Shown: piece after piece, positions 9,404-33,461 of the stretch | How positions within the stretch are numbered: position 1 is the first letter of the stretch | How the letters are laid out: each line of letters begins with the position of its first letter | Program-made: the position numbers and the translations under genes | Assembly (NCBI RefSeq): GCF_011043545.1 | Contig: NZ_JAAKGP010000004.1 | Span: 62,001 to 126,000 of the forward strand | Origin: Rhodobacter sp. SGA-6-6 | GTDB lineage: Bacteria; Pseudomonadota; Alphaproteobacteria; Rhodobacterales; Rhodobacteraceae | Reading direction: 5' to 3' | Length of the DNA: 64,000 bases | Notes under the pieces: model-generated | Told to the model about the DNA's origin: nothing | The model's database searches: none | Seen by the model: only the letters and a program-made list of their open reading frames with translations

Positions 9404-9616
9404 GGCCGGGCGGGAGAAGGCGAGGCTCTGCCTCGCCCCCGCCCGTGCACAACGCATCAACCGGAGACGGTGGCGGCACGAGACCCCGAGAGGCCAGCGC
9501 CCGACCCGGCGGGCGAGAAGCGCCCGCCGAGGGCGGGGCGGGCGCTGGCCGGGCCATTGAGGCCCGGCCGGTCCCGGTTGAAACGGCGCGCCGTGGCGAA
9601 GGCACGCGCCTTCGCC
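9404..9616 (-). repeat. Four-hairpin 3' repeat element, copy A
   Basis: About 213 bases lying in the 348-base spacer between the gpmI start and the stop of the DMT gene at 9651. Read on the minus strand it begins 35 bases after that stop. In order it has a GGCGAAGGC/GCCTTCGCC stem (9595-9616), a GGCCGGGCC/GGCCCGGCC stem (9547-9569), a large central stem built on GGCCAGCGCCCG with an inner GGCGGGCG/CGCCCGCC hairpin (9492-9550), and a GCGAGGC/GCCTCGC stem (9420-9436). Near-identical copies are at 12215, 20514 and 33253. The remaining ~100 bases up to gpmI show no gene. It is non-coding; its role is unknown. Confidence 0.85.
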
Positions 9617-9632
9617 ATGGAAGCCGCGGAAC

Positions 9633-9653
9633 GGCGGGGTGAACCCCGCCCTA
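9633..9653 (-). repeat. Stop-codon hairpin repeat (TAG plus GGCGGGG/CCCCGCC)
   Basis: On the minus strand the TAG stop of the DMT gene is followed at once by GGCGGGGTTCACCCCGCC, a 7-bp stem with a short loop. The identical arrangement follows mnmD at 28407 and a variant follows the DUF4424 gene at 18616. There is no T-tract, so rho-independent termination is uncertain. Confidence 0.75.
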
Positions 9654-10559
9654 CGGCCGACCGGCAGCCCGCCACTCGGCCTCCTTCTCGCGCACCCGCT
9701 GGCGCCAGAGCGTGAAGACCCCTGCCGCGACCACCACCGCGGCGCCGATCACCACGTTCAGCCGCAGCACCTCGCCGAAGACCAAAAGCCCGATCGCCGC
9801 CACCCCGACCAGCTGGATATAGGCGAAGGGCTGGATCGCCGAGGCCTCGGCCAGCGCATAGGCCCGGATCAGCGTGTAGTGCCCCAGCAGCGCCGTGCAG
9901 CACAGCACCGCCATCAGCATCTGGTCCTGCCCGGTCATCGGCTGCCAGTGCATCAGCCCGAAGGGCGTGATCGCCGCGGCGCAGACCACCCCGGTCCAGA
10001 AGAAGCTTACAAGCGCGCTGTCGCCCCGCGCCACATAGCGGGTCAGCAGGTTGTAGAGCGCATAGAGCAAGGCCCCCGCCAGCGGCACCAGCGCCCAGAC
10101 CGACAGCACCCCCGCCCCCGGCTGCAGGATGATCAGCACACCGACGAAGCCGGCCCCTATGGCCGCCCAGCGCCGCCAGCCCACATTCTCGCCCAGCACC
10201 GGGCCGGACAGCGCCGCGACCAGCAGCGGATAGATGGTGAAGACCGCATGGCTCTCGATCAGGCCCAGCTTCGTGAAAGCGAAGACCATCACGCAGATCT
10301 CGAAGACCAGGATCACCCCGCGCGCCAGTTGCAGCAGCGGGAACTCGGTCCGCACCGAGCCCCTTATGCCGCCCGGCGCCCGCAGCGCCAGCACGAGGAC
10401 GAAGGCGGCGAAGGCCCAGAAGCGGATCGCCACCACCATCCAGACATTGTAGGTCTCGGCCAGGTGGCGCGAGATGCCGTCCTGCGCGGCGAAGATCAGG
10501 CTGGTGAAGATCATCAGCCAGATGCCCGCCCGCATGTTCTGCGGCGTCGCCTGCCTCAT
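9651..10559 (-). CDS. DMT-superfamily (EamA) transporter, second of tandem pair
   Basis: Inner-membrane exporter-type protein of 302 residues with two EamA repeats and about ten hydrophobic helices. Diagnostic stretches are FAAQDGISRHLAETYN and ALSGPVLGENVGWRRWAAI in the first half and QPFAYIQLVGVAAIGLLVFGE in the second. It is clearly paralogous to the upstream gene, with the same AAQDG-SR and LSGPVLGE signatures, so the pair arose by tandem duplication. The start at 10559 overlaps the stop of that gene as ATGA. Paired DMT proteins sometimes work as heteromers, but that is only a possibility here. The substrate is unknown. The C-terminal tail is basic and cytoplasmic. Confidence 0.85.
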   Translation of the reverse strand: MRQATPQNMRAGIWLMIFTSLIFAAQDGISRHLAETYNVWMVVAIRFWAFAAFVLVLALRAPGGIRGSVRTEFPLLQLARGVILVFEICVMVFAFTKLGLIESHAVFTIYPLLVAALSGPVLGENVGWRRWAAIGAGFVGVLIILQPGAGVLSVWALVPLAGALLYALYNLLTRYVARGDSALVSFFWTGVVCAAAITPFGLMHWQPMTGQDQMLMAVLCCTALLGHYTLIRAYALAEASAIQPFAYIQLVGVAAIGLLVFGEVLRLNVVIGAAVVVAAGVFTLWRQRVREKEAEWRAAGRP

Positions 10560-11440
10560 CTGCCCCGCCTTTCCTGCGCCAGCGCGAACAGCCCCGCGGC
10601 GACGATGATGCCGGTGCCCAGCGCCACCGGCAGCGACAGCCTTTCGCCATAGACCGTCAGCCCGATCAGGGTGACGAAGACGATCTGCAGATAGGCATAG
10701 GGCTGGACCCGCGCCGCCTCCACCTGCTCGTAGCATTTCAGCAGAAGCCAGTGGGAGAAGATCGACAGCCCGCTGTAGACCGCCAGCGGCAGGATGTGCT
10801 CCGCCGCCACCGGCTCCAGGTTCGGCAGGCCGAGGGCGGTCATCAGCACGGCGCCCACCACGCCGGGCCAGAACAGCGAGGGGAAGGTCGGCTCCGCCCG
10901 CGTGGTCATCCGGGTCAGCACCGAATAGAGCGCGAAGAGGAAGGCCGAGCCCATCGGCAGCAGCGCCGCCCAGCTGAACACGCCCATCCCCGGCCGCAGG
11001 ATCACCAGCACGCCCAGCATCCCCGCCGCCACCGCCGCCCAGCGCTGCCAGCTGAGCCTTTCGCCCAGCACCGGCCCGGACAGCGCCACCACCACGAGCG
11101 GGCAGATGGCGAAGATCGCATGGCTCTCGATCAGGCCGATCAGGGTATAGCCCCAGACGATCAGACAGATCTCCGCCACCAGCAGCGCGCCGCGCAGCAC
11201 ATGCGCCGGCAGCCGCGAGGACCGGACCGCCGCCCGCGCGCCCTCGGGCCGCCGCAGCGCCAGGAGGACGACGAAGCCGGCGAAGGCCCAGTAGCGGATC
11301 ATCACCACCATCAAGGTGTTGTATTCCCCGGCCAGCCCGCGGCTGAAGCCGTCCTGCGCCGCGAAGGTGGCGACGGCCGCGACCATCAGCAGGATGCCGA
11401 GGCGCGGGTTCTTCGAGGCGGCGGGGGCGACGATCGACAT
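10556..11440 (-). CDS. DMT-superfamily (EamA) transporter, first of tandem pair
   Basis: A 294-residue membrane protein with two EamA domains and about ten hydrophobic segments, including FAAQDGFSRGLAGEYN, GYTLIGLIESHAIFAICPL and QPYAYLQIVFVTLIGLTVYGE. It is paralogous to its downstream neighbour. I placed the start at 11440 (MSIVAP); in-frame ATGs at 11458 and 11503 would add 6 or 21 residues, and no strong ribosome site separates them. It is divergent from a LysE-type exporter across 108 bases, so three exporters share this region. The substrate cannot be read from sequence; amino acids or drug-like metabolites are typical for the family. Confidence 0.82.
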   Translation of the reverse strand: MSIVAPAASKNPRLGILLMVAAVATFAAQDGFSRGLAGEYNTLMVVMIRYWAFAGFVVLLALRRPEGARAAVRSSRLPAHVLRGALLVAEICLIVWGYTLIGLIESHAIFAICPLVVVALSGPVLGERLSWQRWAAVAAGMLGVLVILRPGMGVFSWAALLPMGSAFLFALYSVLTRMTTRAEPTFPSLFWPGVVGAVLMTALGLPNLEPVAAEHILPLAVYSGLSIFSHWLLLKCYEQVEAARVQPYAYLQIVFVTLIGLTVYGERLSLPVALGTGIIVAAGLFALAQERRGR

Positions 11441-11548
11441 GATGCCGCCCGATACCATGCCGCAGGGGCAGGCGGAAGGGCGGCCCGCGGAGGCGGATTG
11501 CACCGCCGCGGCCTTCGGTTATGGTGCGCGCCGAAGGGGGACCCGGAC

Positions 11549-12184
11549 ATGCTGGCATCGCTTCTGGCCTATTCCGCCGCGCTCGGCCTCGCGGCGGCGA
11601 TTCCCGGCCCGGGGGTGGCCGCGCTGGTCGGGCAATCCATGGGCGGCGGGTTGCGGGCGGCGCTGTTCCTGCTGGCCGGGATCGCGCTCGGCGACGTGAT
11701 CTACCTGACCGTCGCCGTGGCGGGACTGTCCGCCATAGCCCAGACCTTCTCCGGCGTGTTCCTGGCGGTGAAGCTGCTCGGCGGGCTTTACCTGATCTAC
11801 CTGGCGGTGAAACTCTGGACCAGCCGCGCCGGGGTGACCGAGGCCGGGAACGGGCAGAGGCGCAGCGGCCTCGGCGCCTTCCTCAGCGGGTTCTCCGTCA
11901 CCATGGGCAATCCCAAGACGATCATCTTCTACCTCGCCCTGCTGCCGACGGTGCTGGACCTGCACAGCGTTGGCCCGGCCGAATGGGCGCTGCTGGCGGC
12001 GGTGACGGTCTGCGTCCTCTTCGCCACGCTGACGCCCTATGCGGTGCTGGCCGCCCGCGCCCGCAGCATGATGAAACGCCCCGCCGCGGTGGCCCGGCTG
12101 AACCGGCTGGCGGCAGGGATCATCGGCGGGACGGGTGCGCTGATCCTGGGGCAGGCGGCCGTGGCGGTGGCGCGGCGGGGGTGA
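11549..12184 (+). CDS. LysE/RhtB-family amino-acid exporter
   Basis: A 211-residue inner-membrane protein with six hydrophobic segments. It shows the family's N-terminal AAIPGPGVAALVGQSMGGGLRA signature in its usual place near residues 17-38 and the mid-protein FSVTMGNPKTIIFYLALLP stretch that is near-universal in LysE/RhtB proteins. It probably exports amino acids or homoserine lactone-like molecules by proton antiport; the substrate is not predictable. GAAGGGGG ends about eight bases before the ATG. It is convergent with the DUF4139 gene, with repeat copy B between them. Confidence 0.9.
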   Translation: MLASLLAYSAALGLAAAIPGPGVAALVGQSMGGGLRAALFLLAGIALGDVIYLTVAVAGLSAIAQTFSGVFLAVKLLGGLYLIYLAVKLWTSRAGVTEAGNGQRRSGLGAFLSGFSVTMGNPKTIIFYLALLPTVLDLHSVGPAEWALLAAVTVCVLFATLTPYAVLAARARSMMKRPAAVARLNRLAAGIIGGTGALILGQAAVAVARRG

Positions 12185-12214
12185 GGATACGGCCTTCGTC
12201 TGTGCCCGAAGCCC

Positions 12215-12428
12215 GGTCCGGGCGGGATCAGGCGAGGCATTGCCTCGCCCCCGCCCGTGCGGGACGGTTGCACCCGGAAACACCGGCAGCCCTGAACCCC
12301 GAGAGGCCAGCGCCCGACCCGGCGGGCGAGAAGCGCCCGCCGAGGGCGGGTCGGGCGCTGGCCGGGCCATTGAGGCCCGGCCGGTCCAGCTGAAACGGTG
12401 CGCTATGGCGAAGGCACGCGCCTTCGCC
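12215..12428 (-). repeat. Four-hairpin 3' repeat element, copy B
   Basis: Same architecture as copy A. It begins 31 bases beyond the stop of the DUF4139 gene (12459, minus strand) and reaches to within 31 bases of the lysE-family stop on the other strand. The terminal stem GGCGAAGGC/GCCTTCGCC is at 12407-12428. In this copy the outer arms of the central stem, GGCCAGCGCCCGACCC and GGGTCGGGCGCTGGCC, pair perfectly over 16 bp, better than in copy A. The spacer between the inner hairpins diverges from the other copies while the stems do not. Confidence 0.85.
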
Positions 12429-12458
12429 AAGGCAGGCGTTACCGGGAAGATGCTGCGC

Positions 12459-14072
12459 TCACCGCAGCACCATCCCCTCCGGCCAGGTCATGGTATAGCC
12501 CAACGTCACCGTCTTCTGCTCGCCCGCCTGCAGGGTGAAGTCCCAGGCCAGGATGCCGCGCTGGCCGTCGACATCGGTCTCCGTGGGCACAGGCTTGGCC
12601 GTGGTCTCGATCTCCAGGTCGTCCTGCTCCGAATAGGGCACCTGGTCCATCAGCCGCACCGGCCAGGCCTCGGCCCCGAGGTTCTCGACCTTGATCACCA
12701 CCTCCTCGCTCTGCCGGTTGGAGGTGGTCAGGATGCCGGTCTCGCCGCCGCTCCGCTGCGGCATCTCGCGGGTGATCCGCAGGGTGTCCAGCGCACCGAA
12801 GGCCAGTTCCGTCTCTGCCCCCGGCGCGATCAGCGGCAGCGAGGCGGCGCCGACCAGCACGCCCTCGCGGAACAGCAGCGCCTCGCCGGGCAGCACCGGC
12901 TCGTCGCCGTTGACGAAGCGCGCCATGACGAAGGCGCTGGCGTCCCAGCGGGCCACGGCGCGGGCCTCGACCACCGGGGCGAAGTCCACCCGGTCCAGCG
13001 GCAGGCGCAGGTCCTCTACCCCCGAGGCGACATCGACCTTGCGCGGGTAGATGTAGACCACCGTGTCGCCCTCCATCGCCGCCTCGGCGGTGACCGGGGC
13101 GGCGGGGACGGCCTCCATCTCCGGCGCCGCACCGGCCGCGCGGGCGCTGTCATAGGCGGCCGGCGGCTCCTCCGGCCCGATGCTGCGCAGCTCGGGCCAG
13201 AGCGTGGAGGGCCAGGCCTGTTCCGAAGGGCGCGAGGACGACAGCACCAGGTCCACCCCGGTCCAGTCCTCGCCGGTGTATTGGGTGACCAGGACCGAAC
13301 GGTCCAGCGCCAGCGCGGCCTCGCCCTTGCGGGTCAGGTCGACCTCGTAGAACGGCCGCCAGCCAGCGGCGTCGATGTAATGGGTCAGGGTCAGCACCGC
13401 CTCGCCCGGGGCCTCGGCCTCCAGCGCCATGACCAGCGCGGTATAGTCGCCGTCGCGCGCGGGCAGCGCCGCCAAGGCGTCCCGCGCCTTGACCAGCGCC
13501 TCCTGCACCTCCGCCAGCGCCTTCTGCGCCGGCCAGAGGTCCTTGCGCGCGGCGGCGGCCTCCGCCTTCGCCGCCAGCGTCTCGGCGCCGATCATCGCCG
13601 CCATCGCCTGCAGGCTTTCCGGCGTGGCATTGTCGGGCAGCCCGCCGGTGAAGGACGACAGGAAGCCCGCCCGCGCATTGGCGGCGTCGATCCGGGCCTG
13701 CACCTGCTCCAGCGCGGCGAAGGCCTCGCGCTCCGCCGCCTCCAGCCGCTCGACCTCGGCCCTGGCCGCCTGCTGCTCCGCGGTCAGCGGCTCCTCCCGC
13801 GGCGGCAGGCGGTCGGCGCGCAGGCTGAAGGCGCCGTGGCTGACCCCCTCGGGCGCGGCGACCTGCATCAGCCCGGCGCGGGTGTCGGCGGGCAGGTCTG
13901 TGACCAGCAGCTCGTGCGACCCGGCCGAGGGCAGGGTGACGGTGACCAGCCGCGTGACCTTGGCGCCCTGCGGATAGACGGTCACCGCGGTGACGGTGCT
14001 TTCGGCGGTCAGGGTATCGGCCAGCGCGGGAAAGGCGGTGGTGGCCAGAAGGGCGGCGAGAAGGCGGCGCAT
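12459..14072 (-). CDS. DUF4139 (MuiA-like) exported protein
   Basis: A 537-residue exported protein. Signal peptide MRRLLAALLATTAFPALA is followed by the DUF4140 N-terminal domain (about 25-120; STVTAVTVYPQGAKVTR is characteristic), a coiled coil (about 100-210) and the DUF4139 beta-rich domain (about 215-537; WRPFYEVDLTRKGEAALALD, IYPRKVDVASG). The family is often called mucoidy inhibitor A, but no biochemical role is established. I set the start at the signal peptide, because longer upstream reading lacks one. Copy B of the four-hairpin repeat follows its stop. It is probably periplasmic. Confidence 0.85.
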   Translation of the reverse strand: MRRLLAALLATTAFPALADTLTAESTVTAVTVYPQGAKVTRLVTVTLPSAGSHELLVTDLPADTRAGLMQVAAPEGVSHGAFSLRADRLPPREEPLTAEQQAARAEVERLEAAEREAFAALEQVQARIDAANARAGFLSSFTGGLPDNATPESLQAMAAMIGAETLAAKAEAAAARKDLWPAQKALAEVQEALVKARDALAALPARDGDYTALVMALEAEAPGEAVLTLTHYIDAAGWRPFYEVDLTRKGEAALALDRSVLVTQYTGEDWTGVDLVLSSSRPSEQAWPSTLWPELRSIGPEEPPAAYDSARAAGAAPEMEAVPAAPVTAEAAMEGDTVVYIYPRKVDVASGVEDLRLPLDRVDFAPVVEARAVARWDASAFVMARFVNGDEPVLPGEALLFREGVLVGAASLPLIAPGAETELAFGALDTLRITREMPQRSGGETGILTTSNRQSEEVVIKVENLGAEAWPVRLMDQVPYSEQDDLEIETTAKPVPTETDVDGQRGILAWDFTLQAGEQKTVTLGYTMTWPEGMVLR

Positions 14073-14180
14073 GGGGAAACCTCGCGAAAGGGACTGGGGC
14101 GAGGCTAGGCCCCTGCGCCCGGGTCGGCAAGGCAGGGATACCCGGCCCAAGGACCGGCGCGCGGGATGCGTTGCAGGGGG

Positions 14181-15092
14181 TTACTGCATCTCGAAGGCCG
14201 CCGGATCGGGGCCGGTTCGGCTGGCTTCGTCCAGCGTGGCGATGGCGGCCATTTCCCCCGGCGTCAGCGTGAAGTCGAAGAGGTTCAAATTCTCGGCCAG
14301 CCCGGCCTCGCGGGTGGACCGGGGGATGACCGAGGCGCCGATCTGGATATGCCAGCGCAGGATGACCTGCGCCGGGCTGCGGCCGGTGCGGGCGGCAGCG
14401 GCGATGACCGGCGGGGCGGCGAAGCTGTGGCCGCCGCCGAGCGGTGTCCAGCTCTGGGTGACGATGCCATGGGCGCGGTGGAAGGCGCGCAGGGCGGGTT
14501 GCTGCAGGCGGGGGTTGATCTCGATCTGGTTGACCGCGGGCACGACCCCGGTCTCGCCGATGATCCGCTGCAGATGCGGCTCGTTGAAGTTCGACACGCC
14601 GATGGAGCGGGCGCGGCCCTCGTCGCGCAGGCGGATCAGCGCGCGCCAGGTGTCTGTGTAGAGGTCGCGGGAGGGGCAGGGCCAGTGGATCAGCAGGAGG
14701 TCGACATGGTCGAGGCCGAGGCGGGCAAGGCTGGCCTCGGCGGCGCGCAGGGCCTTGTCGAAGCCCTGATCGCTGTTCCAGATCTTGGTGGTGACGAAGA
14801 CCTCATCGCGCGGCAGGCCGGAGGCGCGGAGGCCTGCACCCTGACCCTCCTCGTTCCGGTAGGCGGCGGCGCCGTCGACCAGCCGGTAGCCGAGGCGCAG
14901 GGCGGTGGCGGTGGTGGCGGCTGTCGTGGCAGCAGGCACCTGCCAGAGGCCGAAGCCGAGCTGCGGCATCTGGCGGCCGTCGTTGAGGGGGAGGAGGGGG
15001 GAGGTCGCGCCGGGGGTTTCGTCCCGCGCCCGGCACAGGGTGGCGAACCTGTGCCACAGTGCATCGTCGCAATGGAAAAGGGTCTCGGCCAT
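14181..15092 (-). CDS. Aldo/keto reductase (AKR3/5 type)
   Basis: NADPH-dependent carbonyl reductase, 303 residues, with a TIM-barrel core from about residue 35. The catalytic tetrad is complete: Asp73, Tyr78 in VDGAAAYRNEEG, Lys103 in TTKIW and His136 in LLIHWP. GVSNFNEPHLQ, NQIEINPRLQQ and IPRSTREAGLAENL match 2,5-diketo-gluconate reductase-like enzymes. The first ~33 residues (MAETLFHCDDALWHRFATLC...) are an extra N-terminal segment not usual for the family; a shorter start would remove it but has no better ribosome site. It lies 36 bases downstream of asd on the same strand. Substrate unknown. Confidence 0.9.
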   Translation of the reverse strand: MAETLFHCDDALWHRFATLCRARDETPGATSPLLPLNDGRQMPQLGFGLWQVPAATTAATTATALRLGYRLVDGAAAYRNEEGQGAGLRASGLPRDEVFVTTKIWNSDQGFDKALRAAEASLARLGLDHVDLLLIHWPCPSRDLYTDTWRALIRLRDEGRARSIGVSNFNEPHLQRIIGETGVVPAVNQIEINPRLQQPALRAFHRAHGIVTQSWTPLGGGHSFAAPPVIAAAARTGRSPAQVILRWHIQIGASVIPRSTREAGLAENLNLFDFTLTPGEMAAIATLDEASRTGPDPAAFEMQ

Positions 15093-15120
15093 GGCCGAGA
15101 CCCTATCGAAGCCGTGATGA

Positions 15121-15140
15121 AAGAAGGGTTAACCCTTCTT
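15121..15140. terminator. Perfect 20-bp palindrome containing the asd stop codon
   Basis: AAGAAGGGTTAACCCTTCTT is self-complementary over all 20 bases. The asd TAA lies at its centre (15129-15131). With no loop it would form a cruciform or a small-loop hairpin rather than a standard terminator. It may limit read-through from asd or bind a dimeric protein. The role is inferred from symmetry only. Confidence 0.4.
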
Positions 15141-16151: not shown

Positions 16152-16167
16152 CGGGGTATCTCCTGAT

Positions 16168-20513: not shown

Positions 20514-20728
20514 CCGGCCGGGCGGGATCAGGCGAGGCACTGCCTCGCCCCCGCCCGTGCGCAGCAGCGGCACCCGGAGACATCGGTCACGCGAAACTAC
20601 GAGAGGCCAGCGCCCGACCCGGCGGGCGAGAAGCGCCCGCCGAGGGCGGGGCGGGCGCTGGCCGGGACTTGTGGTCCCGGCCGGGATGGTTGAACCGTTG
20701 CGCCGTGGCGAAGGCGATGGCCTTCGCC
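20514..20728 (-). repeat. Four-hairpin 3' repeat element, copy C
   Basis: In the 326-base spacer between the MttB-family start (20432) and the MFS stop (20759). On the minus strand it begins 31 bases past that stop. The second stem reads GGCCGGGAC/GTCCCGGCC instead of GGCCGGGCC/GGCCCGGCC: both sides changed and pairing is kept. The first stem keeps GGCGAAGGC/GCCTTCGCC but its loop is GATG instead of ACGC. The rest of the spacer (20433-20513) shows no gene. Confidence 0.85.
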
Positions 20729-20758: not shown

Positions 20759-21997
20759 TCAAGCCGCCTGCGCCATCAGCGGCCGCTCCCGCACCGGCAG
20801 ATGCACCAGCGCCGAGAAGGCGCCCACGCCGACGCCGATCCACCAGACCAGCGTGTAATCCCCGTTCAGGTCGTAGAGCTTGCCGCCCAGCCAGACCCCC
20901 AGGAAGCCGCCGATCTGGTGGCTCAGGAAGACGAAGCCGTAAAGCGTGCCCATGTAGCGGATGCCGTAGATATGCGCGACCAAGCCCGAGGTCAGCGGCA
21001 CCGTCGCCAGCCACAAGGCCCCCATCACCGCCGAGAACACCAGCACCGAGGCCGGCGTGATCGGCAACAGGATGAACACCGCCGCCGCCAGCGTCCGCCC
21101 GGTGTAGATCGCCGCCAGCAGGTATTTCTTGGTGTAGCGCTTGCCCAGCCAGCCTGCGAGCACCGTGCCGACAATGTTGAACACCCCGATCACCGCGATG
21201 GAGACCGCGCCCAGCGTCGAGGTCGCGGTGATGCCGATCATGCTCAGCATCCCGCCGGGGTCGATCGGACCGCAAAGCTCGGTCACGAAGGCGGGGAAAT
21301 GGGCGGTGATGAAGGCCAGCTGGTAGCCGCAGGAGAAGAAGCCCAGGAAGATCAGCGTATAGGAAGGGTCGCGGATCGCCTTGACCAGCACCTGCCCCAT
21401 GCTCTCCTCCAGCTCCTGCCGCGAGGCCAGCCTGGGCGAGCGGATGAAGGGCAGCGCGAACAGACTGCACAGGATGATCGCGGCGAAGACCAGGAACACC
21501 GACTGCCATGGCATGTGCTGCAGCAGCAGCTCGGCGAAAGGCGCGCCGATCACCTGCCCGGCCGAGCCGGCGGCGGTGCCGATGCCCAAGGCCATGCTGC
21601 GATGCTCGGGCGCTGCGGCACGGCCGACGATGGCCAGGATCACCCCGAAGCCGGTGCCGGCGATGCCGAAGCCGACCAGGATCTCCAGCAGCTGATGCTG
21701 CCCCGGCGTCACCGCGAAGGACGACAGCACCAGCCCCGCCGCATACATCAGCGCCCCGGCCACGATGGCCTTCCGGTCGCCGAAACGCTCGGCCACCATG
21801 CCGAACAGCGGCTGGCCGATGCCCCAGGCCAGGTTCTGGATGGCGATGGCCAGGCTAAACTCGGCCCGGGCCCAGCCGAAACCCTCGGCGATGGGAATCT
21901 GGAACACGCCGAAGCTGGCGCGGATGGCGAAGCCCAGCATCAGGATCACCGATCCGGCGATCAGCACCGGGGTGAAAAGCGGGGCCTTGCTCTGCAT
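20759..21997 (-). CDS. Major facilitator superfamily transporter, monocarboxylate/oxalate-formate-like
   Basis: A 412-residue inner-membrane transporter with twelve predicted helices. GFAIRASFGVFQIPIAEGFGW near the N-terminus, GMVAERFGDRKAIVAGAL (loop 2-3) and GYQLAFITAHFPAFVTELCG place it with the OFA/MCT-like MFS members that move carboxylates. The start at 21997 follows AGGAG by eight bases. A perfect 10-bp hairpin (22024-22046) lies in the leader. It is divergent from the alpha-glucosidase gene. Copy C of the four-hairpin repeat follows its stop. The substrate is not determinable; a monocarboxylate is likely. Confidence 0.85.
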   Translation of the reverse strand: MQSKAPLFTPVLIAGSVILMLGFAIRASFGVFQIPIAEGFGWARAEFSLAIAIQNLAWGIGQPLFGMVAERFGDRKAIVAGALMYAAGLVLSSFAVTPGQHQLLEILVGFGIAGTGFGVILAIVGRAAAPEHRSMALGIGTAAGSAGQVIGAPFAELLLQHMPWQSVFLVFAAIILCSLFALPFIRSPRLASRQELEESMGQVLVKAIRDPSYTLIFLGFFSCGYQLAFITAHFPAFVTELCGPIDPGGMLSMIGITATSTLGAVSIAVIGVFNIVGTVLAGWLGKRYTKKYLLAAIYTGRTLAAAVFILLPITPASVLVFSAVMGALWLATVPLTSGLVAHIYGIRYMGTLYGFVFLSHQIGGFLGVWLGGKLYDLNGDYTLVWWIGVGVGAFSALVHLPVRERPLMAQAA

Positions 21998-23808: not shown

Positions 23809-23851
23809 CCGGCTCCCGCCCCTGCATCGGCAGCGCCCGTCTCCGACCTTC

Positions 23852-23999
23852 GCCTCCGGCGGGGATATTTGGGGCAGGTGAATGGAAAGAGGCTCTCTTC
23901 TTGAAATTCACCTGCCACAAATATCCTCAGGGGGTTTGGGGGCAGAATGCCCCCATCGGCCGACAGCGGCCAAGGGAGACTCCGCCAGCCGCCACGACA
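23852..23999 (+). repeat. GGATATTT inverted-repeat element, copy 2 (reversed)
   Basis: Lies 44 bases past the alpha-glucosidase stop and before the convergent lactonase gene. It starts GCCTCCGGCGGGGATATTTG, carries the inner stem GGCAGGTGAA/TTCACCTGCC, closes with AAATATCC and ends with the GGGGGCA/TGCCCCC hairpin and GACTCCGCCAGCCGC. It is the mirror orientation of copies 1 and 3, but relative to the nearest upstream stop codon the orientation is the same. Confidence 0.75.
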
Positions 24000-26394: not shown

Positions 26395-26475
26395 GGGAAA
26401 GGTCTAGCCTTCGCGCCTGCCCGCCCGCAAGCCCGAAGCGGGGACCGAAGGCGCCGCTGCCGCGGCAGGTCTTGT

Positions 26476-26621
26476 CGTTGCGGCTGGCGGAGTCTCTCCA
26501 CAGCTGCTGTCGGACTGATGGGGGCATTCTGCCCCCAAACCCCCTGAGGATATTTAAGTCCAGAAAGAGGAGAGGGTGGTATTTGCCCTCTTTCTGGACA
26601 GCAAATATCCCCGCCGGAGGC
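26476..26621 (-). repeat. GGATATTT inverted-repeat element, copy 3
   Basis: Lies between the dgoK start and the stop of the FAD gene at 26651, 30 bases past that stop on the minus strand. Outer parts match copy 1 (GGGGGCA/TGCCCCC hairpin, CCCTGAGGATATTT, AAATATCCCCGCCGGAGGC), but the inner stem is entirely different: GTCCAGAAAGAG (26558-26569) with CTCTTTCTGGAC (26588-26599), a perfect 12 bp. The inner stem therefore changes while the outer arms stay. Confidence 0.78.
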
Positions 26622-28409: not shown

Positions 28410-28428
28410 GGCGGGGTTCACCCCGCCG
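28407..28428 (+). repeat. Stop-codon hairpin repeat (TAG plus GGCGGGG/CCCCGCC)
   Basis: The TAG of mnmD is followed directly by GGCGGGGTTCACCCCGCC, identical to the element after the DMT gene (9633-9653). As there, the repeat starts with the stop codon itself. The 95 bases after it up to the lipoprotein stop (28524, other strand) hold a second GC-rich stretch and no gene. Confidence 0.75.
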
Positions 28429-28523
28429 CACCTTGTCGGCAAGGTGGGTGGTGTTAGCGGGGGAGGTGGAAGCGCCGTGGAAGTGGCAAGAGACCACTCC
28501 TTGGAGACTTTCCTCCGATGCCC

Positions 28524-29150
28524 TCAACCTTTCACCAATCCCGATATCGTTTCCTGCAGCAGGCTGGGAAGTGACGCCCACACGGGATTCGTCCGATAGG
28601 TCTTGTCCGAAATCCATCCCAGCACCTCCTCCACCCTTCCCTCCGTCACCGCCTCGTCGGTGATCTCCAGCGTCACCGATGTCAGCGCCACCCCCGGCCC
28701 GAAGCTGGCCACAAGGTCCGAGGGCTCCACCCGCCGCACCGTCTTCGGGTCCGCCACATCGTCGAAGGTCACCAGCAGCGGGTAGAGGTCAGGCGGCACC
28801 TCGCGGCTCTCGCGCAGGTCCTCCAGCCGGCCGGCCATCTCGACCGGGGCCTCGCCAGGGAAGAACACCGGGAAGGGCGTCGGCATCCCGTTCAGCAGGG
28901 CGAAGAGGTATCTGCCGGGGGCGACCTCGACCACCACCGCCTCGCCGCGCAGGTAGAAGAAGGCGCCGCGTGCCTCGGGGATGGCGCTGTCGCTATGGCG
29001 CAGGCTGCCCGCCAGCACGCTTTCGCCGACCCGCTCGCCCTCGGGCGTCTCGACGGTGACGGTCACCTTCTGCCGCCAGCCCCACCGCTCGTCGCAGGCG
29101 GAAAGGAACAGGGGCAGCAGGAGCAGCGGAAGAAGGCGGAACAGGGTCAT
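28524..29150 (-). CDS. Putative lipoprotein of unknown function
   Basis: A 208-residue protein with a lipoprotein signal: MTLFRLLPLLLLPLFLSAC, lipobox LSAC with Cys19, then an Asp at +2 (CDE), which in enterobacteria would favour the inner membrane. The mature part opens with a beta-rich segment (KVTVTVETPEGERVGESVLAG) resembling a small carrier domain, and contains GMPTPFPVFFPGEAP and VTFDDVADPKTVRRVEPSDL. I do not recognise a family beyond conserved alphaproteobacterial hypotheticals. It stands alone between mnmD (convergent) and the carbonic anhydrase on the same strand, 85 bases away. Confidence 0.7.
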   Translation of the reverse strand: MTLFRLLPLLLLPLFLSACDERWGWRQKVTVTVETPEGERVGESVLAGSLRHSDSAIPEARGAFFYLRGEAVVVEVAPGRYLFALLNGMPTPFPVFFPGEAPVEMAGRLEDLRESREVPPDLYPLLVTFDDVADPKTVRRVEPSDLVASFGPGVALTSVTLEITDEAVTEGRVEEVLGWISDKTYRTNPVWASLPSLLQETISGLVKG

Positions 29151-29235
29151 GCGACACTCGCAACTTTTGCGCGAGTCCTGCCGCAGGATTGCGGCCGGTC
29201 CGGGGCGCTGGTCGGGCGGCTTCCGGGCCCCGCCC

Positions 29236-29883
29236 CTACACCGGCACGAAACGGCCCTTCGCCGGGTCGTATTGCTCCAGCCCGCCCTCGCCGGTGTCGG
29301 TCCAGAGGCCGTGCAGCGTCAGGCGCTCGCCCTCCACCGCCGCCTTGACGAAGGGGAAGGTCATCAGGTTCTCCAGGCTGGTCAGCACCGCCTGCTTCTC
29401 CAGCGCCTGCAGGATCTGGTCGTCGGGCAGCGAGGACACCTTCTCGAACCCCGGGCGCAGGATGTCCATCCAGCGGCCGACGAAGCTGGTCTTCTGCTCC
29501 AGCTCGGGCGCGAGGCCGCGGCACATGTCGTGGCAGCCCTTGACCCCGCCGCAGTTGGAATGCCCCAGCACCACGATATGCGCCACCCCCAGCGAGGTGA
29601 CGGCGAATTCCACCGTGGCCGAGGTGCCGTGGTTCTGGCCGTCCGGGGTATAGGGCGGCACCAGGCTGGCGATGTTGCGGTGGATGAAGAACTCGCCCTC
29701 GTCGGCCCCGAAGATCGAGGTGACATGCACCCGCGAATCGCAGCAGGAGATCACCATCGCCCGCGGATGCTGGCCGCTTTCGGCCAGCCGGCGGAACCAG
29801 GCGCGGTTGTCCTGATAGGTGGTGGCCTTCCAGCCGTGGAAACGCTGCACCAGATACGTGGGAAGGGGGCGGGCGAACTCCAT
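29236..29883 (-). CDS. Beta-class carbonic anhydrase
   Basis: Cytoplasmic zinc enzyme interconverting CO2 and bicarbonate. The 215-residue protein has all ligands and catalytic residues: Cys47, Asp49, Arg51 in ISCCDSRVH, His108 and Cys111 in LGHSNCGGVKG. HRNIASLVPPY is the family's second motif. The start at 29883 was chosen because GGAGG precedes it by five bases; an upstream ATG at 29910 lacks this. A GHS-C-GG arrangement with Asp49 indicates a type that can switch to an Asp-capped inactive state. No bicarbonate transporter or carboxylase is near. Confidence 0.94.
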   Translation of the reverse strand: MEFARPLPTYLVQRFHGWKATTYQDNRAWFRRLAESGQHPRAMVISCCDSRVHVTSIFGADEGEFFIHRNIASLVPPYTPDGQNHGTSATVEFAVTSLGVAHIVVLGHSNCGGVKGCHDMCRGLAPELEQKTSFVGRWMDILRPGFEKVSSLPDDQILQALEKQAVLTSLENLMTFPFVKAAVEGERLTLHGLWTDTGEGGLEQYDPAKGRFVPV

Positions 29884-30035
29884 GGGACCTCCGTCGCGGT
29901 TGCCCGTCATCTATGCCGCATTCGCAGAAAATTCGAGAGGCAAAATCGCCCGCCGGGCCGCGGCCCGTAAGGAAGCATAAAGCACGGGCGGAGATGATGG
30001 CGGCGGGTGTGAAGACGGCAAGTGTGGGAAAGACC

Positions 30036-30416
30036 ATGGAAAACGTAACGGCCCTGCCCCTGCGCGAGCGGGTGCGTCAGGACGGCGAGGCGATCGCCGC
30101 GATCTACCGCAATCTCGGCACCGCGGCGGCCGAGCAGATGGTGACGCGGGCCTTGGGAGAACTGGCGCTGGCCATGGCCGGACTGGCCGCGCAGGTGAAG
30201 GCGGTGGAACTGGCCGACCTGCCGCGGCAGCTGAAGAAGCTGCAGAGGATGGCCGAGAACCTGGGGATGATCAGCCTGTCGGCGGTGGCGCAGGACGCCC
30301 GCATCTGCCTGGACCGCTGCGACGGCACCGCCTTCACCGCGGTCTGGGCGCGGCTGTTGCGGGTGGCGGAGCGGTCGCTGGCCACCGACAAGGACTTCGC
30401 CGGCCTGTCGGGGTGA
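30036..30416 (+). CDS. Small helical protein, possibly Hpt-like without the phospho-histidine
   Basis: A predicted all-helical protein of 126 residues from MENVTALP; earlier in-frame ATGs at 29994 and 29997 would add 13-14 residues, and no ribosome site decides. The stretch LPRQLKKLQRMAENLGMISLSAVAQDA matches the pattern of the active helix of histidine phosphotransfer (Hpt) domains (x-H-x-L-K-x4-N-L-G-x3-L), but a Leu/Lys stands where the phosphorylated His belongs. If the likeness is real it is a pseudo-Hpt, perhaps an inhibitor or adaptor. No kinase or response regulator adjoins it. Function is otherwise unknown. Confidence 0.6.
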   Translation: MENVTALPLRERVRQDGEAIAAIYRNLGTAAAEQMVTRALGELALAMAGLAAQVKAVELADLPRQLKKLQRMAENLGMISLSAVAQDARICLDRCDGTAFTAVWARLLRVAERSLATDKDFAGLSG

Positions 30417-30474
30417 CGGGGGCATCCGACCCCATGGCGCGGGCGGCGGCGCTGCGCTGTCTTCATGGTGGTCG

Positions 30475-30517
30475 CCTGTCTTTCCGACAAAACCGGATTC
30501 CACTTTTGTCGGACAGG
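30475..30517. promoter_or_regulatory. Long inverted repeat upstream of the aminopeptidase gene
   Basis: CCTGTC (30475-30480) plus CCGACAAAA (30484-30492) pair with TTTTGTCGGACAGG (30504-30517), leaving a TTT bulge and an 11-base loop. It ends 39 bases before the aminopeptidase ATG and 58 bases after the previous stop. It is either an operator or a terminator/leader hairpin; the AAAA/TTTT arms face the loop, so it lacks a U-tract. Confidence 0.45.
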
Positions 30518-30556
30518 CTCTAGGGTCCGGGCGTCCCCAGATCAACGGATGCCTGC

Positions 30557-31936
30557 ATGACCCCCGCTTTCGCCCCGCCCGACGCGCCCTCGCTGCCGCT
30601 GCACATCATCGGTTCCGAGGGGCTGGATGCCTTCCTCGCCGCCAGCCCCCATGCCGGATGGCTGCGCGCCGCCGGGTTCGAGGCGGCTTTGGGCGAGTTG
30701 ATCCTGCTGCCCGGCCCCGATGGCCTCTCTGGCGCCGTCGCCGGCCTCGGCACCGACAAGGCCCGCCGCCGCAGCCGCTTCGGCCTCGCCCGCGCCTTTG
30801 CGGCCCTGCCGCCGGGCGACTGGCATCTGGACGGCCCGCTGACCCCGGAACAGGCCGACGAGGCGGCGCTGGCGGCGCTGCTGTCCTCTTACCGCTTCGA
30901 CCGCTACCGCCCCGGCAAGGCGGCGAAGCCCGGGCCGCGGATCAAGGCCCCGGCCGGGGTGGACGCCGCCCGGATCGAGGCGATGGCGGCGGGCGAGTTC
31001 CTGACCCGCGACCTGATCAACACGCCCGCACAGGACATGGGGCCGGCGGAGCTGGAACAGGCCGCCCGCGACCTTGCTGCCGCCCATGGCGCCACGGTGA
31101 AAGTCACCGCCGGCGACGACCTGCTGGCGAAGAACTTCCCGATGATCCACGCCGTCGGCCGCGCCTCCCCCCGCGCGACGCGGCTGATCGACCTGAGCTG
31201 GGGCGATACCGGCCCCCGGCTGACGCTGGTCGGCAAGGGCGTCTGCTTCGACACCGGCGGGCTGAACATCAAGCCCTCCTCGGGCATGAGCCTGATGAAG
31301 AAGGACATGGGCGGGGCGGCCACCGTGCTGGGTCTGGCGCAGATGATCATGGCGCTGCGCCTGCCGCTGCGGCTGCGGGTGCTGATCCCGGCGGTGGAGA
31401 ACGTGATCGCGGGCAATGCGCAGAAGCCGAAGGACATCCTGACCAGCCGCAAGGGCCTGACCGTCGAGGTCAACGACACCGATGCCGAGGGGCGGCTGGT
31501 GCTGGCCGACGCGCTGGCGCTGGCCGTTGAGGACGGCTGCGACGCGCTGATCTCGATGGCCACCCTGACCGGCGCGGCGCGGGTGGCGGTCGGGCCCGAC
31601 CTCGCCCCCTATTACACCGACGACGAGGGCATGGCGCAGGCGCTGGAGGCGGGCGCAAGGGCGGGCTTCGATCCGGTCTGGCGGCTGCCCTTCCACGATC
31701 CCTACGACGCGGTGATCGAGCCGGGCATCGCCGACCTCGACAACGCCCCGGGCTACGGCTTCGCCGGGTCGATCACCGCCGCGCTGTTCCTGCGCCGCTT
31801 CGCCGACCACCCGCGCTACATGCATTTCGACATCTACGGCCACACCCCGAACGAGGCCCCGGCCCGGCCGAAGGGCGGCGCGGGACAGGGCGCGCGGGCG
31901 ATCCTCGGCGCGCTGCCGGCGATGCTGGAGCTGTGA
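30557..31936 (+). CDS. Leucyl aminopeptidase, M17 family
   Basis: Cytoplasmic two-zinc exopeptidase, 459 residues. The N-terminal alpha/beta domain (1-140) is followed by the catalytic domain. Metal and catalytic residues are complete: Lys227 and Asp232 in VGKGVCFDTGG, Lys239, Asp250 in MKKDMGG, and Asp309, Glu311, Arg313 in NDTDAEGRL. The length is slightly short of PepA (about 500), as usual for the alphaproteobacterial branch. An NlpC/P60 hydrolase starts two bases after its stop. The two may act in peptide or murein-peptide turnover. A long inverted repeat lies upstream. Confidence 0.93.
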   Translation: MTPAFAPPDAPSLPLHIIGSEGLDAFLAASPHAGWLRAAGFEAALGELILLPGPDGLSGAVAGLGTDKARRRSRFGLARAFAALPPGDWHLDGPLTPEQADEAALAALLSSYRFDRYRPGKAAKPGPRIKAPAGVDAARIEAMAAGEFLTRDLINTPAQDMGPAELEQAARDLAAAHGATVKVTAGDDLLAKNFPMIHAVGRASPRATRLIDLSWGDTGPRLTLVGKGVCFDTGGLNIKPSSGMSLMKKDMGGAATVLGLAQMIMALRLPLRLRVLIPAVENVIAGNAQKPKDILTSRKGLTVEVNDTDAEGRLVLADALALAVEDGCDALISMATLTGAARVAVGPDLAPYYTDDEGMAQALEAGARAGFDPVWRLPFHDPYDAVIEPGIADLDNAPGYGFAGSITAALFLRRFADHPRYMHFDIYGHTPNEAPARPKGGAGQGARAILGALPAMLEL

Positions 31937-31938
31937 GG

Positions 31939-32754
31939 ATGGACCGCCGCACCACCCCCTTCTCCGGCCGCGTCGCCCATGTCTCGCTGAAGGGCCGGAT
32001 CGACGCGCCCTTGACCGAGGGCGAACCTGCCTCGGTCGCGCCCGCCTTGGCCGACCTGCTGGCGCGGCCGCACGGACCCCGGGACCGGCAGGTGATCCAT
32101 GGCGAGGCGGTCACGGTAATCGACAGGCAGGACGGCCATGCCCATGTCATGGCGGCGAAGGACGGCTATTGCGGCTGGCTGCCCGAGGCGGCGCTGGCCC
32201 CGGCCTTCGCGCCCACCCACCGTGTCAGGACCCCGGCGACGCATCTCTACGAAGGGCCGAAGGCGCAAAGCCCGGCGCTGATGCCGCTCTACCTCGGCGC
32301 GCGGGTGGTCGTCACCGGGATCGAGGGCAAATGGGCGCAGACCCCGGAGGGATACATCCCGGCGATGCACCTTGCGCCCATCGGCGACCATGCGACGGAC
32401 CCGGTGGCGGTGGCCGAGATGTTCCTGCACACGCCCTATTACTGGGGCGGCAATTCCGCGGCGGGGATCGACTGTTCCGGCCTCGCGCAGGCCGCCCTGC
32501 TGGCCGCCGGCCTGCCCTGCCCCGGCGACAGCGACCTCCAGCAGGCGGTCGGGCAACCGATCCCTGAGGGCGCGCCCCTGCACCGCGGCGACCTGATCTT
32601 CTGGAAGGGCCATGTCGCGCTGATGACCGCGCCGGACCGGATCATCCACGCCAACGGCGGCACGATGTCGGTGGCCTATGAGGGATTGGCCGAGGCCTTG
32701 GCAAGGATCGAGGCGCAGGGCGAAGGCGGCCTCGTTGCCCGCCGCCGCCCCTGA
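31939..32754 (+). CDS. NlpC/P60-family cysteine hydrolase with SH3b domains
   Basis: Predicted gamma-D-glutamyl-L-diamino-acid endopeptidase (or related amidase) acting on murein peptides. Two SH3b-like domains occupy about residues 45-90 and 95-148 (HGEAVTVIDRQDGHAHV; YEGPKAQSPALMPLYLGARV). The C-terminal NlpC/P60 domain has the catalytic Cys179 in AAGIDCSGLAQ, His225 in WKGHVALM and His237 in IIHANG. No signal peptide is visible, so it is cytoplasmic and would act on recycled peptides. I chose ATG 31939, eight bases after GGAG; a GTG at 31933 overlapping the aminopeptidase stop is possible. Confidence 0.9.
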   Translation: MDRRTTPFSGRVAHVSLKGRIDAPLTEGEPASVAPALADLLARPHGPRDRQVIHGEAVTVIDRQDGHAHVMAAKDGYCGWLPEAALAPAFAPTHRVRTPATHLYEGPKAQSPALMPLYLGARVVVTGIEGKWAQTPEGYIPAMHLAPIGDHATDPVAVAEMFLHTPYYWGGNSAAGIDCSGLAQAALLAAGLPCPGDSDLQQAVGQPIPEGAPLHRGDLIFWKGHVALMTAPDRIIHANGGTMSVAYEGLAEALARIEAQGEGGLVARRRP

Positions 32755-32783
32755 TTTCATCTTGCCATAAATATCCCGGGGGT

Positions 32784-32801
32784 GCGGGGGCTGGCCCCCG
32801 C
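32784..32801. terminator. GC hairpin between convergent genes
   Basis: GCGGGGG/CCCCCGC with a four-base CTGG loop, in the 56 bases between the NlpC/P60 and DUF2794 genes, which converge. The preceding CATAAATATCCCGGGGG (32766-32782) matches one half of the GGATATTT repeat family, so this is probably a reduced copy serving as a two-way terminator. Confidence 0.55.
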
Positions 32802-32810
32802 TGCAACGCC

Positions 32811-33158
32811 TCAATCCACCGGACGGATCAGCTTCTTCTCCAGCACCTTCAGCACCGCCTCCAGCTCTTGCCCGCGACGCAGCACCTGGCCCTCGGCGCC
32901 GAGGACGGCATAGATTCCCTGCCTGTCACGCAGCTTCGGCCGCTTCTCGATCCGGTAGAGCGGCACTTCGGCGGTGCGGCGGTAGATGGCGAAGACCGCC
33001 ACCTCGCGGCCGAAGGACATGCCGTAGTCGCGCCATTCGCCGGCGGCGACGAACTGGCCGTAGAGCCGCAGGATCACCGAAAGCTCCCGCCGGTCGAAGA
33101 CCACCTGCTCGGGCTGACGCTCTCCCAGAGGGAAGGGAACGGGCGCTTCCATGTTCAT
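32811..33158 (-). CDS. DUF2794 family protein
   Basis: A 115-residue cytoplasmic protein conserved in Rhizobiales and Rhodobacterales. PEQVVFDRRELSVILRLYGQFVAAGEWRDYGMSF and REVAVFAIYRRTAEVPLYRIEK are the conserved core, followed by a charged C-terminal helix ending in LEKKLIRPVD. No function is known for the family. The start MNMEAP was chosen at 33158, where conservation is expected to begin; an upstream reading to 33194 adds a Cys-rich leader (MICRAKCRK) that looks spurious. There is no strong ribosome site at either. Copy D of the four-hairpin repeat lies upstream. Confidence 0.8.
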   Translation of the reverse strand: MNMEAPVPFPLGERQPEQVVFDRRELSVILRLYGQFVAAGEWRDYGMSFGREVAVFAIYRRTAEVPLYRIEKRPKLRDRQGIYAVLGAEGQVLRRGQELEAVLKVLEKKLIRPVD

Positions 33159-33252
33159 GGGCGGAAGCTTGCGGCACTTGGCCCGGCAAATCAAGCGCGC
33201 CGTGATTCCGGGGCGTTAGGAGGGAGGGGCAGCGTCCGGGGCAGAGGTTTGT

Positions 33253-33461
33253 ACCGGGCGGGAGAAGGCGAGGCACTGCCTCGCCCCCGCCCGTGCGCAA
33301 CATGTCAACCGGAGACCTGTCGGCACGAGACCCCGAGAGGCCAGCGCCCGACCCGGCGGGCGAGAAGCGCCCGCCGAGGGCGGGGCGGGCGCAGGCCGGG
33401 CCTTGGAGGCCCGGCCTGTCCGGTGAGATGGTGCGCCGTGGCGAAGGCACGCGCCTTCGCC
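33253..33461 (-). repeat. Four-hairpin 3' repeat element, copy D
   Basis: In the 342-base spacer between the DUF2794 start and the asparaginase stop (33501); on the minus strand it begins 40 bases past that stop. Stems: GGCGAAGGC/GCCTTCGCC (33440-33461), GGCCGGGCC/GGCCCGGCC with loop TTGGA instead of ATTGA, the central GGCCAGCGCCCG stem with one A-A mismatch (GCGCAGGCC), and GCGAGGC/GCCTCGC (33269-33285). The ~95 bases between it and DUF2794 show no gene. Confidence 0.85.

What the first reader, a model, noticed from the sequence alone, without database searches (positions are those of the whole stretch)
9404..33461. A ~210-nt four-hairpin element sits 31-40 nt past the stop codons of four unrelated genes, always in the same orientation
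Copies A (9404-9616), B (12215-12428), C (20514-20728) and D (33253-33461) follow a DMT exporter, a DUF4139 protein, an MFS transporter and an asparaginase. Gaps from stop codon to element are 35, 31, 31 and 40 nt. All read in the sense of the gene they follow. Mobile elements with no function would not be expected to keep spacing and orientation. Possible roles: a processed 3'-UTR RNA, a stability or termination module, or a protein-bound 3' element. I cannot name a known family.
Basis: seen in the sequence. Interest (0 to 1): 0.8.

Follow-up and report, generated by a model that had tools for sequence, protein, structure and literature searches.

The report
Four-hairpin repeat oriented by replication
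A 210-base DNA repeat made of four hairpins is scattered about two hundred times through this bacterium, mostly just past the ends of genes, and it tends to point with the direction of DNA replication rather than with the genes, which suggests a mobile palindromic repeat related to REP elements rather than a piece of each gene's messenger RNA.

Summary
The four ~210-nt copies are real. The genome has about 200 (201 hits to a 24-mer); I studied 150 in 39% of it. Spacing is real: median 28-34 nt to a facing stop, on either side. Gene-sense orientation is not: tandem pairs hold 45 antisense and 29 sense copies, 62 copies lie between convergent genes. Orientation follows the replication strand: 125 of 150 have the top strand on the C-rich strand, in every gene context; KOPS-like GGGCAGGG gives the same count. 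Facing stops within 60 nt are TAG in 75 of 154 against 52 of 301 controls, and GTAG-tagged hairpins sit beside part of the copies, so element ends often supply the stop. Stems covary between genera. No Y1 transposase here, no target duplication, no Rfam match in the window. In G241, a second rich genome, the KOPS marker shows no polarity (16 of 36) and there is no clear TAG excess. Best reading: a new, large composite REP/BIME-type repeat, spread as non-autonomous DNA, perhaps through single-stranded lagging-strand DNA.

The parts
9407..9616 (+). copy A of the 210-nt core, between the EamA gene (- strand, stop at 9651) and the iPGM gene start
9407..9445 (+). hairpin 1 of copy A (outer CGGGCGGG stem, inner GGCGAGGC stem)
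   Evidence: the inner helix has 4 of 8 pairs with double changes
9492..9550 (+). hairpin 2 of copy A, the long core hairpin; the part covered by most of the matches listed for other genomes of the family
9549..9567 (+). hairpin 3 of copy A
9595..9616 (+). hairpin 4 of copy A
9633..9654 (-). REP-like module beside copy A: GTAG foot (9651-9654) plus GGCGGGGTTCACCCCGCC palindrome (9633-9650); its TAG is the stop codon of the EamA gene
12219..12428 (+). copy B, between convergent LysE (+, ends 12184) and DUF4139 (-, ends 12459) genes
20519..20728 (+). copy C, between the MFS gene (-, stop at 20759) and the MTTB gene start (20432)
33255..33461 (+). copy D, between the asparaginase II gene (-, stop at 33501) and the DUF2794 gene start

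Best explanation
The element is the core of a large composite palindromic repeat of the REP/BIME kind: a non-autonomous mobile DNA about 210 nt long with four hairpins, in part of the copies still flanked on one or, rarely, both sides by a GTAG-tagged REP-like end. SHOWN: about 200 dispersed copies; placement beside gene 3' ends whatever the gene's sense; orientation that follows the replication strand in this genome; an excess of TAG stop codons at element ends; stems held while spacers drift; compensatory stem changes between genera. INFERRED: it spread as folded single-stranded DNA at replication forks, which would give one orientation per replichore, using an enzyme now absent from this genome; copies survive where they harm least, between convergent genes and just past stops; the hairpins, being palindromic, may now serve genes on either side as a two-way 3'-end block that protects or ends transcripts.
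For: About 200 copies. 145 full-length copies: median pairwise identity 83%, maximum 94.8%, so no recent burst among those sampled. Paired columns diverge 2.3% from consensus, inter-hairpin linkers 23%. Orientation: 125 of 150 on the C-rich strand; 13 of 13 contigs with a majority agree with GC skew; with gene-corrected skew 120 of 150. A second marker, the octamer GGGCAGGG (309 against 61 on the G-rich strand outside elements, contigs C44 and C4 left out), gives 125 of 150 by contig and 95 of 123 by stretch; it is not fully independent of skew, being G-rich and picked out by its bias along skew, but it is a known KOPS form and KOPS are biased to the leading strand (PMC2680272, passages). Stops facing the element within 60 nt: TAG 75 of 154 against 52 of 301 stops with a gap of 100 nt or more and no element, p = 5.5e-12. 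GTAG-footed hairpins: 40 of 53 lie within 150 nt of a core. REPs lie mostly at 3' ends between convergent and unidirectional genes, and GTAG REPs often provide the TAG stop (PMC3733652 section 15). IS200/IS605 elements insert into the lagging-strand template as single strands (PMC6006769, passages). Stem covariation on 20 sequences: 15 pairs and 61 cells changed on both sides against shuffled means 7.4 and 18.7, 0 of 500 shuffles. Stem mismatches here do not clearly favour one strand (G.T 54, A.C 37, p = 0.09), as expected for DNA or for use in both senses.
Against: No Y1/RAYT transposase in this genome; of 20 genomes with a match to the element (many only to hairpin 2), G027 has clear Y1 matches and G283 one marginal. 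In G241, 36 copies show no polarity by the KOPS-like marker (16 of 36 by contig, 17 of 32 by stretch), lean to the opposite sign by local skew (28 of 36; by contig mean 14 of 36 on the negative-skew strand) and are even by gene-corrected skew (20 of 36); facing stops there are TAG in 4 of 16 against 122 of 653. So polarity and GTAG ends are shown in this genome only. Contig C44 has no polarity (7 and 7) although its KOPS-like bias is strong (53 and 6). Copies with a GTAGGG or GGTAGG flank are not significantly more polar (54 of 61 against 70 of 88, p = 0.18), and only 10 of 149 copies have the motif on both sides. rpoB lies on the C-rich strand of C12, contrary to that strand being lagging there. 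Skew and the sampled copies do not switch near dnaA on C1; oriC and ter were not located. One covariation measure, further pair types, is weak (27 against 24.4, 38 of 500 shuffles reach it). In G283 A.C exceeds G.T (26 against 7), not explored.
Confidence: 0.6

Rival explanations
1. A processed or regulatory 3'-UTR RNA module read in the sense of the upstream gene.
For: Spacing of about 30 nt from the stop codon; stem conservation and covariation. In 15 small G283 loci, 17 of 18 copies have a gene stop on their 5' side, though 13 of these are convergent (my reading); in G241 tandem copies are 8 sense and 5 antisense (27 full-length copies classed).
Against: Here tandem copies are 45 antisense and 29 sense, and 62 of 148 are between convergent genes; no clear preference for G.T over A.C on the top strand; no Rfam match at gathering thresholds in the window.
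Confidence: 0.08
2. A two-way transcript-end block: each copy is kept by selection because its GC-rich hairpins end or protect the 3' ends of transcripts arriving from either side; mobility is only its past.
For: 62 copies between convergent genes with medians of 33 and 34 nt on the two sides. The stop-to-element gap rarely holds a perfect 8-bp hairpin (7 of 174) or a terminator-like site (6 of 174), against 163 and 54 of 511 stops without an element over up to 100 nt (the gaps are much shorter, so this is only suggestive). By eye, relatives without the element have other hairpins after the MFS gene. The bottom strand of the consensus scores as terminator-like. Stems vary about ten times less than linkers.
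Against: No terminator-like site on the top strand in any of 150 copies and on the bottom strand in only 18; it does not explain replication polarity; most genes lack the element.
Confidence: 0.2
3. A replichore-polar chromosome sequence (like KOPS or other architecture-imparting motifs) whose orientation is selected for segregation or replication.
For: Polarity in every gene context, p = 3.4e-17 overall, opposite to the KOPS-like octamer strand.
Against: No polarity by the KOPS-like marker in G241, nor in contig C44 where that octamer is strongly polar; no GGGCAGGG in the consensus, and its octamers are skewed both ways outside elements.
Confidence: 0.07
4. An ordinary MITE moved by a DDE transposase through terminal inverted repeats.
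For: The consensus flanks are weakly inverted (CGG-YTT on the 5' side, AA-CCG on the 3' side).
Against: No adjoining target duplication of 3 nt or more (0 of 137) and no offset that stands out in a scan; flanks of one copy do not pair better than shuffled flanks; DDE insertion is not expected to give polarity of this strength (general knowledge).
Confidence: 0.05

Closest known systems
GTAG-tagged REP elements, BIMEs and REPINs (PMC3733652: abstract and sections 6, 7, 15, 16 read; PMC3116915: passages)
   Same: High copy, palindromic, intergenic, close to 3' ends, mostly between convergent and unidirectional genes, GTAG end supplying TAG stops; in some copies inverted tagged ends.
   Different: The core is 210 nt with four hairpins, of which hairpin 2 alone is about 59 nt, against REPs of 20-40 bp; no RAYT gene here; only part of the copies still show the tagged end; orientation polar to replication.
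IS200/IS605-type single-strand transposition (PMC6006769, passages)
   Same: Would work like it: hairpins, no target duplication, orientation bias expected from the lagging strand.
   Different: No Y1 transposase in this genome and no fixed target tetranucleotide at the element ends.
BRE of Bordetella and other Betaproteobacteria (PMC3110155, passages)
   Same: GC-rich structured, mostly intergenic repeat of high-GC genomes.
   Different: About 90 bp, at most 29 copies in a genome, and reported as not co-oriented with the replication fork.
KOPS and other strand-biased octamers (PMC2680272, passages)
   Same: Orientation biased by replichore.
   Different: Octamers that guide FtsK; this is a 210-nt structured element and shows no such polarity in G241.

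Membership tests
GTAG REP superfamily | palindrome of 20-40 bp with an unpaired GTAG foot | tested here: inconclusive
   Met by an outer hairpin in part of the copies (40 GTAG-footed hairpins within 150 nt of a core; 61 of 149 copies have GTAGGG or GGTAGG in an inward 80-nt flank); not a feature of the 210-nt core itself.
GTAG REP superfamily | intergenic, at 3' ends, GTAG end supplies TAG stops | tested here: met
   (this genome; no clear TAG excess in G241).
REPIN/BIME | two inverted REPs as one unit | tested here: inconclusive
   Inward GTAGGG/GGTAGG on both sides in 10 of 149 copies, on one side in 51.
RAYT-dependent REP system | Y1 (PF01797) RAYT gene in the genome | tested here: not met
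   0 matches in G000; 2 of 20 genomes with a match to the element have any.
IS200/IS605 non-autonomous element | no target duplication and a fixed short target at the cleaved end | tested here: not met
   No duplication, but no invariant 5' target; only an A at +1 (136 of 137) is fixed.
MITE of a DDE transposon | terminal inverted repeats with target duplication | tested here: not met
   0 of 137 adjoining duplications; scan.
Gene-sense 3'-UTR RNA | same orientation as the upstream gene | tested here: not met
   45 antisense and 29 sense tandem copies.
Any Rfam family | match above the gathering score | tested here: not met
   (whole window, 0 matches); a weak RT-15 hit on copy B (19.4 bits, gathering 82) was not seen in six relative loci.
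Replichore-polar functional motif | polarity kept across genomes | tested here: not met
   125 of 150 in G000, 16 of 36 in G241; one other genome only, small sample.

The most novel reading that the evidence does not exclude
A Rhodobacteraceae element that amplifies as folded single-stranded DNA at replication forks without any Y1/RAYT enzyme, through an unrecognised mobilising activity, leaving hundreds of replication-polar four-hairpin copies whose stems are then held by a shared function at transcript ends.
Probability: 0.25. Interest if true: 0.75.

Novelty: new variant of a known kind. Interest (0 to 1): 0.5.

Why it matters
REPs are described as repeats of 20-40 bp (PMC3733652); a 210-nt structured one whose direction is set by replication rather than by genes points to how such repeats insert. 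It also shows that constant spacing to stop codons need not mean a 3'-UTR function, because the repeat can bring the stop codon with it. If confirmed on closed genomes, it gives a countable record of strand-biased insertion and a lead to an unknown mobilising enzyme in Rhodobacteraceae. None of the papers listed in the ten literature searches made here was seen to describe it.

Tried and rejected
Gene-sense 3'-UTR RNA: rejected here on genome-wide orientation. RAYT mobilisation now: no PF01797 in G000. DDE MITE: no duplication. Terminal stem joining the two flanks: flanks of one copy pair no better than shuffled flanks. RT-15 Rfam lead (E 0.009 on a 251-nt search): not seen in six relative loci. 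KOPS carrier: no GGGCAGGG in the consensus. Phages: no match; plasmids: only the core hairpin, on two Leisingera records; both tools say records very near this genome may be left out. RNAalifold on 145 copies gave a poor consensus structure, so the hairpins were counted from local folds and from a named structure.

Limits of counts: gene calls are by my own codon-usage script, not a standard caller. The 80 stretches were mostly chosen around known copies, so density and spacing between copies are not estimated. The 24-mer count of 201 allows 3 mismatches, only the first 100 places were listed, and one copy was seen listed on both strands. The hairpin counts (88 in all, 64 near cores) double-count overlapping matches; I use instead (61 hairpins; 53 GTAG-footed, counted by strand). 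In alignment A3 a few rows are shifted in the outer stem of hairpin 1, which lowers that helix's figures; the 20 rows of A3 were chosen by me, 4 from this genome. Fragments under 100 bits (45 in G241) were left out of copy counts; 2 of 150 copies at stretch edges were dropped; one search used 145 and one search used 137 full-length copies; one search used 149. The copies per genome are not counts: 2 candidates were scored per genome.
Full report
WHAT IS THERE. The four copies are real, all on the + strand of the window, about 210 nt each (model bounds 9407-9616, 12219-12428, 20519-20728, 33255-33461). The window lies on contig C33 of a 4.29-Mb draft genome, G000, in 67 contigs. By its argC protein the closest named species listed are Xinfangfangia pollutisoli and Tabrizicola soli (both 94%) and Pseudogemmobacter faecipullorum (90%), i.e. 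Rhodobacteraceae (very near records may be left out there). A conserved 24-mer with up to 3 mismatches hits the genome 201 times (112 forward, 89 reverse; 0 for the control pattern). I took 80 stretches of 20 kb, most of them around known copies. With the window this is 1.66 Mb, 39% of the genome, and it holds 150 copies above 100 bits.

ANATOMY. The consensus of 145 full-length copies is 210 nt. It folds locally into hairpin 1 (GGCGAGGC/GCCTCGCC inside CGGGCGGG/CCCGCCCG), a long core hairpin 2, hairpin 3 directly after it and hairpin 4 (GGCGAAGGC/GCCTTCGCC) at the end. Copies are old: median pairwise identity 83%, best 94.8%. Paired columns diverge 2.3% on average from the consensus, loops and bulges 14%, inter-hairpin linkers 23%. 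Within this genome the stems hardly vary, so they show little covariation (4 double-change cells against 0.2 in shuffles, on a poor RNAalifold structure). Between genera they do. On 20 sequences from ten genomes, 95.7% of cells pair, 15 pairs have changes on both sides and 61 cells are double changes (shuffled means 7.4 and 18.7; 0 of 500 shuffles reach either; slid structures give 1-6 such pairs). The number of further pair types is only slightly above the shuffles (27 against 24.4; 38 of 500 reach it), and relatedness of sequences can by itself exceed such shuffles. As an example, hairpin 1 reads GGCGAGGC/GCCTCGCC here and GGAAACGC/GCGTTTCC in G283. Stem mismatches do not consistently favour G.T over A.C on the top strand (54 against 37 here, p = 0.09; 10 against 5 in 16 relatives; 5 against 7 in G241; 7 against 26 in G283), so no single RNA strand is indicated.

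POSITION AND GENE SENSE. Using my own codon-usage gene caller, 148 of 150 copies could be classed: 62 between convergent genes, 45 in tandem pairs with the gene antisense to the element, 29 in tandem pairs with the gene sense to it, 12 between divergent genes. The median gap to a facing stop codon is 28-34 nt; gaps to start codons are larger (medians 96-153). So the spacing claim holds and the gene-sense claim does not. In G241, 27 full-length copies were 9 convergent, 8 sense, 5 antisense, 5 divergent. In 15 G283 loci I read 13 convergent, 4 sense and 1 antisense among 18 copies.

REPLICATION. The majority orientation differs sharply between contigs (29 and 3 on C1, 3 and 22 on C23; heterogeneity beyond all 2000 permutations). 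It follows GC skew: 125 of 150 copies have the top strand on the C-rich strand by contig (p = 3.4e-17), 110 of 150 by the skew of their own stretch, and 13 of 13 contigs with a majority agree. With gene-corrected third-position skew the figure is 120 of 150. It holds in each gene context: convergent 52 of 62, tandem antisense 35 of 45, tandem sense 25 of 29, divergent 11 of 12. In 74 tandem copies, dropping skew from a logistic model costs p = 2e-8, dropping gene strand p = 0.04. When 8-mers outside elements were ranked by bias along skew (contigs C44 and C4 left out), the most biased of 3199 was GGGCAGGG (309 on the G-rich strand, 61 on the other). This is a form of the E. coli KOPS octamer, and KOPS are biased to the leading strand (PMC2680272, passages). 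Used as a second strand marker, not fully independent of skew, it gives the same 125 of 150 by contig and 95 of 123 by stretch. In the sample 56% of coding bases are on the G-rich strand. Against this, rpoB lies on the C-rich strand of C12, C44 shows no polarity (7 and 7), and there is no switch of skew or of sampled copies around dnaA at C1:495 kb. oriC and ter were not located; gidB is on another contig, C67.

STOP CODONS AND REP-LIKE ENDS. GTAGGG is enriched 28-fold in the inward-facing flanks against other intergenic DNA (59 occurrences). Beside copy A the motif is GTAG followed by the palindrome GGCGGGGTTCACCCCGCC (9633-9654, - strand), and its TAG is the stop codon of the EamA gene. In the sample 40 of 53 GTAG-footed hairpins of this kind lie within 150 nt of a core, although the 150-nt flanks of 150 copies make up under 3% of the bases (150 x 300 nt of 1.66 Mb). 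Stops that face a copy within 60 nt are TAG in 75 of 154 cases, against 52 of 301 stops with at least 100 nt of free downstream DNA and no element (p = 5.5e-12). This matches what is described for GTAG REP elements: 3' placement, preference for convergent and unidirectional pairs, and TAG stops supplied by the repeat (PMC3733652 section 15). In the main text of that paper Rhodobacter, Paracoccus, Roseobacter, Ruegeria, Dinoroseobacter, Jannaschia and Rhodobacterales do not occur.

RELATIVES. In 394 genomes of the family, 155 have a match at E <= 0.001; most of the matches listed cover only hairpin 2 (2 candidates scored per genome, so no copy numbers). Full or nearly full copies are numerous in G241 and G283 (50 and 46 matching pieces from 40 scored candidates each). 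G011 gave 11 matching pieces, one of them full length, and G024 gave 13. Single full or diverged four-hairpin copies were seen in a Pseudorhodobacter MAG (L187) and in G024, G214, G310, G339 and G417. G000, G241 and G283 each have their own consensus (15 copies of G241, 17 of G283), as expected of separate amplifications. In G241, 36 copies in 40 stretches show no polarity by the KOPS-like marker (16 of 36); by local skew 28 of 36 have the top strand on the G-rich side, the opposite sign to G000; by gene-corrected skew 20 of 36 are on the negative-skew strand. Facing stops there are TAG in 4 of 16 against 122 of 653. In the few G283 loci, TAG is 7 of 11 facing and 4 of 9 other stops, too few to judge. 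No Y1 transposase is found in G000; of 20 genomes with a match to the element only G027 has clear ones and G283 a marginal one.

INTERPRETATION. The placement, the GTAG-tagged ends in part of the copies and the TAG stops say REP/BIME kind. The size, the four-hairpin core and the replication polarity set it apart. The polarity fits insertion as single-stranded DNA at replication forks, as documented for IS200/IS605 elements (PMC6006769, passages), but the enzyme is missing here and polarity is shown in one genome only. The strong stem conservation, while tagged ends are seen at only part of the copies, suggests the core is now useful or still recognised. A two-way 3'-end block is the simplest use: the stop-to-element gap seldom holds another perfect hairpin (7 of 174, against 163 of 511 stops without an element, with the caveat that the gaps are short), and by eye relatives without the element carry other hairpins after the same MFS gene. 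Terminator-like sites in the element itself are few: 0 of 150 copies on the top strand and 18 on the bottom strand, where the consensus also scores. No RNA data were available.

NOT IN PRINT. Seven searches of the held library on such repeats (0 papers; 39: 14 of 14 listed; 48: 15 of 19; 74: 12 of 50; 86: 10 of 11; 90: 10 of 44; 95: 10 of 843) and three on side questions listed nothing that I could see to describe this element. Beyond listings and abstracts' first lines I saw passages of PMC3110155, PMC6006769, PMC3116915 and PMC2680272, and the abstract, passages and four sections of PMC3733652. Subscription papers are mostly not held.

Noticed in passing
window 4574-4675, 23896-23997, 26450-26555: A second repeat of about 100 nt with a GGGGGCATTCTGCCCCC hairpin and CCTGAGGATATTT; 20 hairpin sites in the 1.66 Mb sample, 16 of them within 300 nt downstream of a same-strand stop, tightly at a median of 79 nt. 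Unlike the main element it appears mostly in gene sense.
   Followed up: partly
window 23830-23873 and 36517-36560: A GGCGGG(A/G)(A/G)TATTTGGG motif a few tens of bases after stop codons; 7 of 7 sites in the sample lie within 300 nt downstream of a same-strand stop.
   Followed up: partly
G000, sampled stretches except C44 and C4: GGGCAGGG is the most strand-biased of 3199 octamers tested (84% on the G-rich strand), a KOPS-like signal in a Rhodobacteraceae genome.
   Followed up: partly
L145:7430-7560 and L146:7410-7540: Relatives without the element carry other long GC-rich hairpins (CTCGTCGAGC... type, by eye) directly after the same MFS gene, perhaps their own lineage-specific 3'-end repeats.
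   Followed up: no
L303-L306, L040, L036, L234, L251, L239 and others: By eye, most of the 20 loci printed have a two-hairpin relative (a GGGCAGCGCCCG-type core plus an adjoining hairpin, about 100 nt) without hairpins 1 and 4; it may be a repeat family of its own.
   Followed up: partly
G310 C108:19226-19640; G283 C20:44504-45314: Tandem or clustered copies of the element within a few hundred bases.
   Followed up: no
G241: Several copies have hairpin 2 interrupted by an insert of about 71-84 nt near consensus position 128.
   Followed up: no
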